NCBI GenBank assembly: GCA_017998575.1
Contig: JAGOCV010000067.1
Location: 1-14,773, forward strand
Length of the DNA: 14,773 bases
Source: Burkholderiaceae bacterium
GTDB lineage: Bacteria; Pseudomonadota; Gammaproteobacteria; Burkholderiales; Burkholderiaceae
Direction: 5' to 3'
In this document: positions 1 through 4,450 of the stretch, piece by piece
Numbering within the stretch: position 1 is the first letter of the stretch
How the letters are laid out: every line of letters begins with the position of its first letter
The notes under the pieces: model-generated
Told to the model about the DNA's origin: nothing
Database searches by the model: none
Seen by the model: the letters and a program-made list of their open reading frames with translations, nothing else
Translations under genes and position numbers: made by a program

Positions 1-66
1 GGATAACGTCAACCCGCGCGCCAGCCATCCAGCTTGGCCATCCAGGCGCGCGGGTTGACGTTATCC
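1..66. repeat. perfect 22-bp inverted repeat at window edge
   Basis: Positions 1-22 are the exact reverse complement of 45-66 (arm begins GGATAACGTCAACCCGCGCG and continues with CC). The 22-bp spacer holds two direct copies of GCCATCCA (24-31 and 37-44). The outer arm (45-66) is ordinary coding sequence of the MAPEG gene; the inner copy interrupts that gene with a stop codon. A fold-back exactly at a sequence end is typical of a chimeric or contig-terminal artefact, though a genuine hairpin cannot be excluded. Confidence 0.9.
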
Positions 67-822: not shown

Positions 823-1155
823 TCAGAAAGGAAACTTCATGCCCCCGGGCAGGCCTGGCATGCCGGCGGTGATCTTGCCCATCTTCTCCTGCGACGTTTC
901 CTCGGCGCGGCGCACGGCGGCATTGAAGGCGGCGGCCACCAGATCCTCCAGCATGTCCTTGTCGTCGGCGAGCAGGCTGGGGTCGATGGTGACGCGGCGC
1001 ACGTCGTGCTTGCAGGTCATGACCACCTTCACGAGGCCGGCACCGGATTCGCCTTCGACCTCGATGTTGCCGAGCTCTTCCTGCGCCTTCTTCATGTTGT
1101 CCTGCATGGCCTGAGCCTGCTTCATGAGTCCGGCGAGTTGTCCTTTGTTGAACAT
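823..1155 (-). CDS. ybaB: YbaB/EbfC family nucleoid-associated protein
   Basis: Small basic DNA-binding protein of the YbaB/EbfC family, 110 residues, usual length. It begins [18 protein letters not shown] and has the amphipathic helix (about 5-30) and central beta-strand region ([20 protein letters not shown]) of the family, which forms tweezer-like dimers on DNA. The C-terminus is rich in Gly, Pro and Met ([13 protein letters not shown]). An AAAGGAAA Shine-Dalgarno sits a few bases before the ATG at 1155. It lies 45 bp downstream of dnaX and 13 bp upstream of recR, its usual place between the clamp-loader and recombination genes. Its exact role in the cell is not settled. Confidence 0.96.
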
Positions 1156-1200
1156 GGGGTTTCCTTTTCCTGGGGTTCGTGTGTTCGGAGTGCCGGTCGG

Positions 1201-3246
1201 TCAGTGACCGGCTCGGGGCGCGGGCTTGATGCTGCCAGGCACGATCCGTGCGCCGTAGTCTCGCATCATCGCCTGCACGAAAGGATCGCCGAGGATGATG
1301 TCCTCGGCCTGCCGCTGGCGTTCGGCCGCGGCCTCGGCGTTGCGGCGCGCGGGGCTGTCGGACACACGGCCGATTTCCACCGCCAACCGCACGGCATGGC
1401 CGGCGCCGGCCAGCGCGGACTGCAGCCGGTCGCGGCTGTTGCCCTGGTTGAGCGACTCGCGCTCCACGCGCAGCAGCCACTGGTCGGTATCCCGCGCAAT
1501 CAGTTGCGATTGCAGGGCCAGCTCGCGCACCAGCGCGGTGACGGCCTCGGCCTGCACCAGCTGGCGGACTACGCCGTACCAGAAGTCGCCCTCTTCCGTG
1601 CGTTCCACGCGCACGGCTGCCGTGGCGGCGGCGACCACGTCCTGGCGCGGCTCGGCCTGCTGGCGCACGGGTACGGGCATCACGGGGGCGGCAGCCGGTG
1701 CCTCGGCGCGGGCCGGCACGGCATCGGGCCGTGGCCGGTCGACCACGGGCAGCACGCGCCCAGGCGGCGCGGTGGCGGGGCCGGTGCGCAGCGCGACGGG
1801 CGGGCGCGTGGGCGCGGCCATGGGCGGATCGTCGCCCTCTTGCGCCATCGCATCGGCCATCGCATCGGCCATCGCTTCGGCCATGGCGTCGGCGGCCGAC
1901 AGTTGCGGACGCGGTGCCGCGGCACGTGGCGCCGCCGCAGGAAGGGGGTCAGCAGCGAGCGCCTGGGCACGGGCCGGCTCGGCCGCCGGTGCCGGCGAAC
2001 GTGATACGACCGGCGCCTCGGCGCGGGACGCAGCGGCCACGGGTGCCGCCACAGGTGCGGGCGTGGAAGCCGGACGCGCCGCGGCCGAAGGCAGCGCCTC
2101 AGCCGCGTTCAGAGTTTTTTTTTCAGCCTGGCCGGCGGCGGCGTCACGCGGCTTGAAGGCCAGCAGCCGCAGCAGCACCATGGTCAGGGCCGCGTATTCA
2201 TCGGGCGCAAGGCCGAGTTCGGCGCGGCCGTGCAGGCACAGGCTGTACAGCAGCTGCGTCTCGTCGGGCGGCATCACGCCAGCCAGTCGCGCCATCTCCA
2301 CGCTCTCTGGATCGTCGTCCGGCGCCTCGGCCTGCGGCACGGCCTGCAGAACGGCCATGCGCTGCAACACCATGCTCATGTCCTCGAGCGTGGATCCGGC
2401 CGACAGGCCGTTGAGCCGCAGCGTCTCCGACGCCTCGACCACCGCGCGCCCATCGCCGCGGGCCAGCGCATCGATGATGCGCAGCACGTGGCCACGATCG
2501 GCACTGCCGAGCATCTGGCGCACACCGGCCTCGTCGAGCTTGCCGGAGCCGAAGGCGATCGCCTGGTCGGTGAGCGAGAGCGCATCGCGCATGGAGCCAC
2601 GCGCGGCGCGCGACAGGAGGCGCAACGCGCCCGGCTCGGCCGGCACGCCTTCGACATCGAGCACGCGCGTGAGGTGCTCGTGCACCGTCTCGGGCGCCAT
2701 CGGCCGCAGGTTGAACTGCAGGCAGCGCGAGAGCACCGTGACCGGAACCTTCTGCGGATCGGTGGTGGCCAGCACGAACTTGAGGTACTCGGGCGGCTCC
2801 TCCAGCGTCTTGAGCATCGCATTGAACGCGGTGTTCGTGAGCATGTGCACTTCGTCGATCATGAAGACCTTGAAGCGGCCCTGCACCGGCTTGTAGACGG
2901 CCTGCTCCAGCAGGCCCTGCACCTCGTCGACCCCGCGGTTGGAAGCCGCGTCGAGCTCGGTGTAATCGACGAAGCGGCCCGCATCGATGTCGGTGCACGC
3001 CTGGCACACGCCGCAGGGCGTGGCCGTGATGCCGCCCTGGCCATCGGGGCCCTGGCAGTTGAGCGACTTGGCCAGCACGCGCGAGACCGTGGTCTTGCCC
3101 ACGCCGCGCGTGCCGGTGAACAGGTAGGCATGGTGCAGGCGCTGCTGCGTGAGCGCGTTGGAGAGGGCCTGCACCACGTGCTCCTGGCCCACCATCTCCG
3201 AGAAGGTCTTCGGACGGTATTTGCGGGCGAGCACCAGATAGGACAT
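1201..3246 (-). CDS. dnaX: DNA polymerase III tau (and probable gamma-like) subunit DnaX
   Basis: AAA+ clamp-loader ATPase that organises the replisome, 681 residues from the start chosen here. I use the ATG at 3246 because the family begins with MSYLVLARKYRP; the frame is open for 37 more codons upstream but these are not family-like. Visible are Walker A GTRGVGKT (45-52), a zinc site (C64, C78, C81, C84), Walker B with DEVH (131-134), the sensor-1 region LATTDP (159-164) and the SRC arginine finger (173-175). The collar domain runs to about residue 370. A long Ala/Pro-rich low-complexity linker follows, then the tau C-terminal domain (about 555-681) expected to contact the polymerase alpha subunit. 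Codons 375-378 form an A9 run followed by an RNA hairpin (separate entry), predicted to give a gamma-like product of about 378-382 residues. A TAGAAT -10-like box lies 7 nt before the start. Confidence 0.97.
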   Translation of the reverse strand: MSYLVLARKYRPKTFSEMVGQEHVVQALSNALTQQRLHHAYLFTGTRGVGKTTVSRVLAKSLNCQGPDGQGGITATPCGVCQACTDIDAGRFVDYTELDAASNRGVDEVQGLLEQAVYKPVQGRFKVFMIDEVHMLTNTAFNAMLKTLEEPPEYLKFVLATTDPQKVPVTVLSRCLQFNLRPMAPETVHEHLTRVLDVEGVPAEPGALRLLSRAARGSMRDALSLTDQAIAFGSGKLDEAGVRQMLGSADRGHVLRIIDALARGDGRAVVEASETLRLNGLSAGSTLEDMSMVLQRMAVLQAVPQAEAPDDDPESVEMARLAGVMPPDETQLLYSLCLHGRAELGLAPDEYAALTMVLLRLLAFKPRDAAAGQAEKKTLNAAEALPSAAARPASTPAPVAAPVAAASRAEAPVVSRSPAPAAEPARAQALAADPLPAAAPRAAAPRPQLSAADAMAEAMADAMADAMAQEGDDPPMAAPTRPPVALRTGPATAPPGRVLPVVDRPRPDAVPARAEAPAAAPVMPVPVRQQAEPRQDVVAAATAAVRVERTEEGDFWYGVVRQLVQAEAVTALVRELALQSQLIARDTDQWLLRVERESLNQGNSRDRLQSALAGAGHAVRLAVEIGRVSDSPARRNAEAAAERQRQAEDIILGDPFVQAMMRDYGARIVPGSIKPAPRAGH
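1844..1891. repeat. four 12-bp tandem repeats in the tau linker
   Basis: Four consecutive 12-bp units are seen on the plus strand, two identical GCCATCGCATCG copies followed by GCCATCGCTTCG and GCCATGGCGTCG. On the coding (minus) strand they encode an (A-[D/E]-A-M)-type repeat in the disordered linker of tau. Units are a multiple of three, so copy-number change would keep the frame. Confidence 0.85.
2080..2124 (-). promoter_or_regulatory. predicted dnaX programmed frameshift/slippage cassette
   Basis: On the coding strand the mRNA reads GCT GAA AAA AAA ACT, an A9 run (2115-2123) holding an in-frame A AAA AAA heptamer. Eight nucleotides after the heptamer comes an 11-bp stem (CGCGGCTGAGG, 2107-2097, with CCTTCGGCCGCG-type partner at 2090-2080) around a 6-nt loop. 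Two pairs are G-U and are mismatches on the opposite strand, as expected for an RNA element. A -1 shift reads N-S-E-R-G and stops at TGA 2099-2101; a +1 shift stops at TGA 2109-2111. The truncated product would be about 378-382 residues, the clamp-loader domains only. E. coli dnaX uses A AAA AAG plus a hairpin, and Thermus thermophilus dnaX uses an A9 slippage run. No clear internal Shine-Dalgarno stimulator is seen. Confidence 0.8.
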
Positions 3247-3253
3247 CCGCCCG

Positions 3254-3259
3254 ATTCTA
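3254..3259 (-). promoter_or_regulatory. putative -10 box of dnaX
   Basis: TAGAAT on the minus strand, followed by CGGG and separated from the dnaX ATG (3246) by only 7 nt. This would place transcription start at or within a few bases of the start codon. No obvious -35 box is visible. Confidence 0.45.
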
Positions 3260-3297
3260 CGGGGCCGCCCCGGTCCGGCCCCACGGCGGCCATCCCC

Positions 3298-3303
3298 GAT
3301 AAT
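3298..3303 (+). promoter_or_regulatory. putative -10 box of the PurM-like gene
   Basis: GATAAT followed by CGCGCCC and then the ATG at 3311, a 7-nt gap and no Shine-Dalgarno. The layout mirrors that of dnaX on the other strand, so the 64-bp divergent region holds two back-to-back near-leaderless promoters. Confidence 0.5.
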
Positions 3304-3310
3304 CGCGCCC

Positions 3311-4450
3311 ATGACTTCTGCCTCTACCGGCCACGGCACGCCCGCAGCCACCGACACGCTGAGCTACGACCAGGCCGGCGTCAACTACGACCTGATCGAT
3401 CCCCTCAAGGTGAGCGCACAGCGCGCCGCCGCCGCCACGGCCTCGCACCTGCTGGGCCATGGCTTCACCGAGATCGCCGCCTCGCGCGGCGAATCGGCCT
3501 ATGTGGTCGACGTGGGGCCGTTCTACCTGGCCAGCATCGTCGAATGCCTGGGCAGCAAGGCCCTGGTGGCCGACGAAATGAGCCAGCTCACCGGCCGCAG
3601 TTACTACGACGGCATCGCGCAGGACACCATCGCCATGGCGGTGAACGACCTGATCACCGTGGGTGCCACGCCCCTGGTGGTGCAAGCCTACTGGGCGGCC
3701 GGCGGCTCCGACTGGTTCGGCGACGCCCAGCGCGCGCAGGCCCTGGTGGCCGGCTGGAAGAAAGCCTGCGACACCTGTGGCGTGGCCTGGGGTGGCGGCG
3801 AGACACCCGCTCTGGCGGGCATCGTCGAATCGGGCCGCATCGACCTCGCGGCTTCGTGCACCGGCCTCATCAATCCCAAGCAGCGCCTCTCGGTCGGCGA
3901 CAAGCTGGGCGCCGGCGACGCCATCGTGCTGCTGGCCTCCAGCGGCATCCATGCCAACGGCCTCTCGCTCGCGCGCAAGCTGGTCGAGCGCCTGCCCGGT
4001 GGCTACCTGACCGAAATCGAACCCGGCCTCACCTACGGCGACGCCCTGCTCGCCCCGACGGTGCTGTATTCGCCCGTGACCGAGGCGCTCTACAAGGCCG
4101 GCATCACGCCGCACTACTGTGCCAACATCACGGGCCACGGCTGGCGCAAGCTGCTGCGCCACCCGGGCGAGTTCACTTACCGCATCAACAAGGTGCCGCC
4201 CGTCACGCCGGTGCTGCGCTTCATCCAGCAGCACGCGAAGCAGGACGACCGCGAGGCCTACAGCACGCTCAACATGGGCGCGGGCTTCGCGCTCTTCGTG
4301 CCGGCAGCCGATGCGCAGCGCACGGTGGACGTGGCAAAGGCCTGCGGCATCGACGCCATCGTGGCCGGCCGGGTCGAGGCGGGTCCCAAGCAGTTGGTGA
4401 TCGAGCCGATCGGCGTGACTTTCGGCAACGACGACCTTCAATTGCGCTGA
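3311..4450 (+). CDS. PurM-like (AIR synthase-related) protein, divergent paralogue
   Basis: 379 residues with the two-domain PurM/AIR synthase fold. PurM proper closes formylglycinamidine ribotide to AIR in purine synthesis, and several features are shared with it: AGVNYDLIDPLK near the N-terminus (22-33), AMAVNDL (108-114), GGGETP (161-166), SSGIHANGLSL (209-219), LLAPTVLY (245-252) and NMGAGFAL near the C-terminus. However, the glycine-rich TDGVGTK loop of true PurM is replaced here by DVGPFYLASIVECLGSK (67-83), and the PurM TGGG motif is TGHGW (273-277). It therefore looks like an AIR synthase-related paralogue with a changed substrate or nucleotide site, not the housekeeping enzyme. The ATG at 3311 has no Shine-Dalgarno but a GATAAT box 7 nt upstream. 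The SRP RNA gene follows about 50 bp downstream. An automatic annotation as phosphoribosylformylglycinamidine cyclo-ligase is likely, but the activity is uncertain. Confidence 0.85.
   Translation: MTSASTGHGTPAATDTLSYDQAGVNYDLIDPLKVSAQRAAAATASHLLGHGFTEIAASRGESAYVVDVGPFYLASIVECLGSKALVADEMSQLTGRSYYDGIAQDTIAMAVNDLITVGATPLVVQAYWAAGGSDWFGDAQRAQALVAGWKKACDTCGVAWGGGETPALAGIVESGRIDLAASCTGLINPKQRLSVGDKLGAGDAIVLLASSGIHANGLSLARKLVERLPGGYLTEIEPGLTYGDALLAPTVLYSPVTEALYKAGITPHYCANITGHGWRKLLRHPGEFTYRINKVPPVTPVLRFIQQHAKQDDREAYSTLNMGAGFALFVPAADAQRTVDVAKACGIDAIVAGRVEAGPKQLVIEPIGVTFGNDDLQLR

What the first reader, a model, noticed from the sequence alone, without database searches (positions are those of the whole stretch)
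2080..2130. dnaX carries an A9 slippery run plus an RNA-specific hairpin: predicted gamma-like product
Seen: in a GC-rich gene the codons GAA AAA AAA ACT form A9 with an in-frame A AAA AAA heptamer. Eight nucleotides later an 11-bp stem with a 6-nt loop can form; its two irregular pairs are G-U only on the mRNA strand. Both shifted frames stop at once (-1 after N-S-E-R-G; +1 after one codon). The break lies at residue 377, just after the clamp-loader domains and before the disordered linker. Known: E. coli makes gamma by -1 frameshifting on A AAA AAG with a hairpin, and Thermus by transcriptional slippage on A9. Inference: this species combines both types of signal. The use of AAA instead of the favoured AAG argues for selection.
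Basis: partly seen in the sequence, partly recalled or inferred. Interest (0 to 1): 0.75.

Follow-up and report, generated by a model that had tools for sequence, protein, structure and literature searches.

The report
Conserved polymerase-slippage site in dnaX
A run of nine A's in the gene for the DNA-replication clamp loader, with stop signals waiting in both wrong reading frames, is kept in nearly all sampled members of one bacterial group and most likely lets the cell make a second, shorter clamp-loader protein by letting RNA polymerase stutter on the run.

Summary
In dnaX (window 3246-1201, minus strand) A9 at 2123-2115 reads GAA AAA AAA ACT; an 11-bp stem with 6-nt loop follows after 7 nt; both shifted frames stop at once. 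The run is not chance: all 80 retrieved relatives keep it (79 A9, 1 A10), as do 136 of 140 tips of the window's clade (A8-A10). Stops are kept in BOTH shifted frames by unusual synonymous codons, although the -1 stop moved or changed type about 61 times on the tree. The hairpin is not kept, even in the nearest relative, and no Shine-Dalgarno-like signal is enriched before the run. This is the anatomy described for Thermus dnaX transcriptional slippage rather than E. coli-type -1 frameshifting. A lineage within the same clade has A_AAA_AAG, a near-invariant Shine-Dalgarno-like upstream block and mostly a near stop in the -1 frame only, so the clade seems to hold both mechanisms, partly correlated with a second lysine tRNA. 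Predicted products: tau 681 aa, gamma-like 378 and 382 aa. Slippage itself is inferred; no expression data were available.

The parts
1201..3246 (-). dnaX, clamp-loader tau (681 aa; start ATG 3246)
   Evidence: TIGR02397 dnaX_nterm 392.9 bits over cut-off 250; Pfam delta2/AAA+, ATPase lid, gamma3 (domain III, 238-365) and tau_5 (547-671); solved gamma/tau chains
2115..2123 (-). A9 slippery run, phase GAA AAA AAA Axx, codons 375-378
   Evidence: sequence; run in 80 of 80 loci and in 136 of 140 clade tips (A8-A10)
2109..2111 (-). stop (TGA) of the +1 frame, product ...EKKL (378 aa)
   Evidence: +1 stop within 21 nt in 134 of 139 A-run tips of the clade
2099..2101 (-). stop (TGA) of the -1 frame, product ...EKKNSERG (382 aa)
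   Evidence: -1 stop within 21 nt in 122 of 139 A-run tips of the clade
2080..2107 (-). hairpin, 11-bp stem (2107-2097 / 2090-2080), 6-nt loop; present here but not conserved, role doubtful
2116..3246 (-). part coding the shared residues 1-377 of tau and the gamma-like products (AAA+ domains and domain III)
   Evidence: solved gamma chain 1jr3_A 1-362 aligns to residues 1-367; Pfam domain III ends at 365

Best explanation
The site is a programmed transcriptional-slippage site of the Thermus dnaX kind. RNA polymerase copying the T9 template adds or drops A's in a share of transcripts. Unchanged (or +/-3) transcripts give tau (681 aa); A10 (or A7) transcripts are read in the -1 frame and stop after N-S-E-R-G (382 aa for A10); A8 or A11 transcripts stop after L (378 aa for A8). 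The short products are a gamma-like clamp-loader subunit ending right after domain III, without the linker and the C-terminal part that holds the predicted polymerase-binding domain V. Shown here: the anatomy, its conservation, the codon-level selection for stops in both frames, the lack of a conserved hairpin and of an enriched upstream element. Inferred: that slippage happens, its rate, and what gamma does.
For: (1) Run in 80 of 80 loci (these were picked by similarity to the full protein). In a family sample not chosen by the site, 53 of the 90 dnaX loci fetched from 110 genomes have a run of 8 or more; of the 37 without it, 4 lie inside the window's clade, 32 outside it, and 1 (L320) was left out of the tree. 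136 of 140 tips in the window's clade have it. (2) Stops in both frames: of 129 distinct genes the -1 stop lies within 18 nt in 105, the +1 stop in 122, both in 98; random in-frame points give 15% and 13% downstream and 10% and 19% upstream in the same genes. With amino acids held fixed and codons redrawn, both stops within 21 nt occur in 13.5 (sd 3.3) of 126, observed 104. (3) Codons: CTA in 17 of 109 leucines against 1.2% elsewhere; before a G, where among CTx codons only CTA makes the +1 stop, 5 of 6 are CTA against 38 of 2393; CTC before A 0 of 100 against 616 of 1332; T before GA/AG/AA (needed for the -1 stop) in 51 of 60 against 1306 of 13006. (4) Turnover with retention: about 61 changes of the -1 stop's place or type and 13 of the +1 stop type on the FastTree tree. 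(5) The 9th A, outside the heptamer, is kept through Thr or Ser codons in 127 of 129 genes. (6) No enrichment of a Shine-Dalgarno-like signal: mean best anti-SD energy -3.50 against -3.72 in control stretches. (7) Nearest relative G001 has tRNA-Lys UUU and CUU, the condition suggested for Thermus in PMC5009743 (section 21, read), which also states that Thermus dnaX has nearby stops in both non-zero frames.
Against: No transcript or protein data. A9 also contains an in-frame A_AAA_AAA heptamer, so -1 ribosomal slippage can add to the -1 product. A small excess of structure just after the run exists (36-nt windows at +5: mean z -0.63, near 0 by +62), though windows upstream of the run deviate too (-0.53 at -66). 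The +1 stop is largely given by the amino acids chosen (86.6 of 126 expected, 120 observed). Other A9 lineages outside the clade (L162, L172, L217) have a near -1 stop but no near +1 stop, so A9 does not always come with both stops. E. coli RNA polymerase is reported to slip less readily on A than on T runs (PMC6260861, passages).
Confidence: 0.75

Rival explanations
1. -1 programmed ribosomal frameshifting of the E. coli dnaX kind on A_AAA_AAA, helped by the downstream hairpin; the short product is the 382-aa form only.
For: In-frame heptamer and hairpin present in the window; -1 stop kept; slight excess of downstream structure in the group; the A_AAA_AAG lineage shows that -1 frameshifting signals do occur in this clade.
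Against: Hairpin not kept; no enriched SD-like element; +1 stop within 21 nt in 134 of 139 A-run tips though -1 frameshifting does not use it, against 3 of 20 A_AAA_AAG tips; no Rfam match at E<=1 in window 1100-3400, while RF00382 scores 96.8 bits in E. coli.
Confidence: 0.13
2. Both processes act together on the same run: polymerase slippage gives both frames, the ribosome adds to the -1 product where a hairpin happens to be present (a variant of the best explanation; the odds overlap).
For: Both signals are physically present in the window.
Against: Hairpin strength varies widely between close relatives while the run stays.
Confidence: 0.2
3. The run is a DNA-level contingency or phase-variation tract, or part of an antisense terminator, not a decoding signal.
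For: Homopolymer; on the + strand a stem precedes the T run, and one weak terminator-like site (5 pairs) is found in 1150-3320, where shuffles give 0.6.
Against: Length is nearly fixed (131 A9 of 134); the stem is not kept; neither idea predicts stops in both shifted sense frames.
Confidence: 0.02
4. The run is a neutral relic without product.
For: None beyond absence of expression data.
Against: AAA 258 of 258 against 34%, and synonymous-codon choice for stops.
Confidence: 0.03

Closest known systems
Thermus thermophilus dnaX, transcriptional slippage on A9 giving gamma
   Same: A9 in the sense strand of an intact tau frame; near stops in both other frames; two lysine tRNAs in the nearest relative's genome (PMC5009743 section 21; PMC1088944 passages)
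   Different: unrelated lineage; site lies at codon 375 of 681, straight after domain III, not seven-eighths along the gene; slippage not measured here
Escherichia coli dnaX, -1 ribosomal frameshifting on A_AAA_AAG
   Same: makes a short clamp-loader subunit from the same gene; -1 stop close behind (2 nt)
   Different: heptamer ends in G, SD-like element (-6.9) and hairpin, +1 stop 34 nt away; E. coli site lies 383 codons past Walker A against a median of 330 in the clade
A_AAA_AAG lineage inside the same clade (20 genes: L239, L298, L336, L338-L341, L343-L349, L351, L352, L356-L359)
   Same: same gene, same region, -1 stop within 14 nt in 20 of 20
   Different: near-invariant upstream GGG-rich SD-like block, +1 stop within 21 nt in 3 of 20 only
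dnaX genes in two frames with an A-run, mostly A10 (GeneTack cluster, PMC3711429, passages)
   Same: A-run in dnaX with inferred transcriptional slippage
   Different: there tau, here gamma, needs the slip

Membership tests
Thermus-type dnaX transcriptional slippage | homopolymeric run of about 9 A inside an intact tau frame | tested here: met
[quoted passage not shown]
   window 3 and 13 nt after the run; 98 of 129 genes with both within 18 nt
Thermus-type dnaX transcriptional slippage | mRNA population with differing A-run length | not testable with these tools
   needs cDNA or direct RNA reads
Thermus-type dnaX transcriptional slippage | tau and gamma made at about 1:1 | not testable with these tools
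   needs immunoblot or mass spectrometry
Thermus-type dnaX transcriptional slippage | no need of ribosomal stimulators | tested here: inconclusive
   no enriched SD-like element, hairpin not kept, but a weak excess of structure remains
E. coli-type dnaX -1 ribosomal frameshifting | A_AAA_AAG heptamer | tested here: not met
   A_AAA_AAA followed by A and C
E. coli-type dnaX -1 ribosomal frameshifting | upstream Shine-Dalgarno-like stimulator | tested here: not met
   A9 group mean -3.50 against control -3.72; E. coli -6.9; A6G group -8.04
E. coli-type dnaX -1 ribosomal frameshifting | downstream hairpin | tested here: inconclusive
   present in the window (-22.0), varies from -23.7 to -5.4 in the seven nearest tips
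E. coli-type dnaX -1 ribosomal frameshifting | Rfam RF00382 match | tested here: not met
   0 matches at E<=1 in window 1100-3400; positive control E. coli 96.8 bits
DnaX (gamma/tau) proteins | TIGR02397 N-terminal model | tested here: met
   392.9 bits, cut-off 250

The most novel reading that the evidence does not exclude
Within one bacterial clade the gamma subunit is made by RNA-polymerase slippage in most lineages (A9, stops in both frames) and by ribosomal frameshifting in another (A_AAA_AAG, upstream stimulator, -1 stop), and the switch goes with loss of the dedicated tRNA-Lys(CUU): found in 16 of 19 A9 genomes and 4 of 20 A_AAA_AAG genomes examined (Fisher p 8.8e-5, not corrected for kinship). 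That would be a natural test of the idea that tRNA content decides at which level a gene is recoded.
Probability: 0.5. Interest if true: 0.78.

Novelty: new member of a known kind. Interest (0 to 1): 0.6.

Why it matters
In the papers I saw, gamma is made by slippage in Thermus, by ribosomal frameshifting in E. coli and its kin, and by proteolysis in Caulobacter (PMC5009743, section 21); a 2012 review says most other bacteria lack such signatures in dnaX and may not make gamma (PMC3290774, passages). If true, a large group of common environmental bacteria makes gamma by slippage, with a related lineage using the ribosome instead. That gives matched material to test what gamma is for and what drives a switch between decoding levels. 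My paper searches for dnaX with slippage or frameshift plus Burkholderia, betaproteobacteria, Acidovorax, Comamonadaceae or Variovorax listed no paper that reports this site by title or abstract (one search listed 15 of 62; the one full text checked for these genera, PMC3711429, names Burkholderia and Delftia only for magnesium chelatase). Only open-licence papers were searchable.

Tried and rejected
Rejected: the hairpin as a conserved element; SD-like stimulation of the A9 sites; Rfam frameshift elements; antisense terminator. The tRNA idea is only partly borne out: 3 of 19 A9 genomes showed UUU but no CUU gene, 4 of 20 A_AAA_AAG genomes have CUU, 15 showed UUU only and one (G376) gave no lysine tRNA; weaker BLAST hits were not all read and assemblies may be incomplete, so absence is not proved. 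A 21st genome of that lineage (G383, dnaX A7G) had two UUU genes and was not counted. The contrast A9 against A_AAA_AAG rests on one or two switches: the FastTree tree has the A6G genes in separate places, but holding all 20 together was not rejected (p-AU 0.878), the quick tree needs 2 changes, and only 2 independent pairs exist on supported branches. In one search one row (L340) was measured at a second A6G site (this touches its SD, hairpin and stop figures); one search corrects the stops. One search's A9 group of 140 held one gene outside the clade (L185); one search recounts with the 139 inside. Rows dropped: L320 (stops inside the tree stretch), L337 (A7G) and L350 (no run) from the A6G group, L342 as a copy of L298, six A-run rows outside the clade. 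keep near-duplicate species; one search removed only identical 150-nt stretches. The class sample (30 loci of 143 genomes) was only looked over. Whole-genome A9 runs other than dnaX (L111-L126) were not annotated.

Full report
What is there. The gene is dnaX, window 3246-1201 on the minus strand, 681 aa, by TIGR02397, Pfam domains and 49 matching distinct PDB sequences led by DNA polymerase III gamma/tau chains. Downstream of it on the same strand lie ORFs that look like ybaB (1155-823) and recR (809-219) (names recalled from the sequences, not searched). At 2123-2115 the mRNA has A9 in the phase GAA AAA AAA ACT. The stops, the stem and the product lengths (378 and 382 aa, 41.0 and 41.4 kDa; tau 72.3 kDa) were recomputed. 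The break follows domain III, which Pfam ends at residue 365.

Is it chance? Composition predicts 5.5e-5 such runs in this gene. No genome is held for the window. In the genome of the nearest relative found (G001, which holds L001; its DnaX is 94% identical to the window's over the best segment, and 99% over 305 aligned columns) A9 or T9 occurs 3 times in 5.0 Mb; in seven other genomes with the site, 3 to 15 times.

Conservation. Of the 80 dnaX loci kept, which are the best matches to the whole protein, 79 have A9 and one (L012) A10 at the site; among 134 genes with a run, 131 are A9 in the same phase, the rest A8 or A10. In a sample of the GTDB family not chosen by the site (110 genomes, 90 dnaX loci fetched) 53 of 90 have a run of 8 or more. 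On a FastTree tree of 279 DnaX N-terminal stretches that leave the site out, 136 of 140 tips of the window's clade (local support 97) have it, and the run needs about 6 changes in all. Of the 37 family-sample loci without it, 4 lie inside that clade, 29 in the neighbouring branch, 3 further off, and L320 was left out. The 32 outside show no slippery heptamer of the kinds searched with a near -1 stop, except possibly L313. Order and class samples show A-runs only here and there.

Selection on codons. In 129 distinct genes all 258 in-run lysine codons are AAA, against 34% elsewhere in the same genes. The -1 stop lies within 18 nt in 105, the +1 stop in 122, both in 98; random in-frame points give 15% and 13% downstream, 10% and 19% upstream. 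Redrawing synonymous codons gives both stops within 21 nt in 13.5 of 126 on average (sd 3.3, largest 24), against 104 observed; the -1 stop alone 21.9 expected, 110 observed. The +1 stop is largely given by the amino acids (86.6 expected, 120 observed), though the amino acids of this linker may themselves be chosen for it. The direct tests are CTA before G (5 of 6 against 38 of 2393), CTC before A (0 of 100 against 616 of 1332) and T before GA/AG/AA (51 of 60 against 1306 of 13006). The -1 stop changed place or type about 61 times on the tree and the +1 stop type 13 times, so the stops are renewed rather than merely inherited.

Hairpin and upstream element. The window's stem is strong but not unusual for its gene (rank 15 of 624, synonymous p 0.09). 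In the window's 8-tip group L001 has -11.6 kcal/mol, L069, L048, L046 and L266 -5.4 to -8.6, L305 -14.1 and L285 -23.7. Over 126 genes the 40 nt after the run are a little more stable than a control at +120 (-13.3 against -11.2; mean z -0.26 against +0.24), and codon shuffles show a small excess near the run, with a deviation upstream as well (-0.53 at -66). The A9 group shows no enriched Shine-Dalgarno-like signal.

The natural contrast. Two of the four clade members without the run, L239 and L298, carry A_AAA_AAG instead. Searching their relatives gave a set of 20 genes with an in-frame A_AAA_AAG. All 20 have a -1 stop within 21 nt; only 3 of 20 have a +1 stop within 21 nt, against 134 of 139 A-run tips of the clade (Fisher p 9e-16, not corrected for kinship). 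Their upstream block GGG(A)GTGCCG(C)CGAGCC is nearly invariant, third codon positions included, with anti-SD energy -8.04 against -3.19 in controls (one row at a wrong site). Hairpin strength does not differ between the groups (p 0.27). One A8 gene, L262, also has only the -1 stop near. Kinship limits this contrast: it reflects one or two switches.

Mechanism. The review PMC5009743 says that Thermus dnaX has near stops in both non-zero frames and makes gamma by polymerase slippage, and suggests that its two lysine tRNAs may explain why it does not use ribosomal frameshifting (section 21 read, other passages). The site here has the same anatomy. Passages of PMC6260861 say that slippage by enterobacterial polymerase occurs on runs of 9 A or T and longer with variable direction, and that the Thermus run gives both shifts in E. 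coli with insertions prevailing. I therefore take slippage as the main route (0.75), with a share of -1 ribosomal slippage possible. tRNA genes: CUU was found in 16 of 19 A9 genomes and 4 of 20 A_AAA_AAG genomes; in the others only UUU was read, apart from G376, where no lysine tRNA was read. This agrees with the published idea but does not prove it.

Known or new. Both mechanisms are known for dnaX. A group-wide slippage site in these bacteria, and a switch within them, did not turn up in my paper searches (open-licence papers only). I file it as a new member of the Thermus kind by anatomy, with the two expression criteria untested.

Noticed in passing
window 2115-2113 and the other dnaX genes: The first codon after the run is ACT (87) or ACA (15) among threonines, ACC or ACG only 5 times, though ACC and ACG make 89% of threonine codons elsewhere in these genes. 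Neither stop needs it; a weak pair just after the run may help slippage.
   Followed up: partly
L239, L298, L336, L338-L341, L343-L349, L351, L352, L356-L359, about 20 nt upstream of A_AAA_AAG: Near-invariant block GGG(A)GTGCCG(C)CGAGCC including third codon positions, more than a plain Shine-Dalgarno sequence.
   Followed up: partly
L162, L172, L217, L106: A9 runs in dnaX of other lineages with a -1 stop 1-4 nt away and the +1 stop 21 to 330 nt away; L217's run lies about 145 codons further along. They may be independent gains of another type.
   Followed up: partly
L185 and L204: A10 followed by G late in the dnaX linker with a +1 stop 2 nt away and a -1 stop 21 nt away.
   Followed up: no
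L320 (G333): dnaX match broken into two abutting pieces near its middle, with the first frame ending there; could be an assembly error.
   Followed up: no
window 1-66: Perfect inverted repeat, 22-nt arms 1-22 and 45-66 with 22 nt between, at the very end of the window; possibly a contig-end fold-back artefact.
   Followed up: no
tRNA-Lys(UUU) of G287, G357, G371, G373, G375, G377: Both A_AAA_AAG groups share an odd T arm in tRNA-Lys(UUU), unlike the two A9 genomes compared (G001, G008), which hints that they are one lineage.
   Followed up: no
L127: Weak match to the Neisseria frameshift element RF01843 (29.1 bits, gathering 50) in a locus whose dnaX has A_AAA_AAG with a GGAGG upstream.
   Followed up: no
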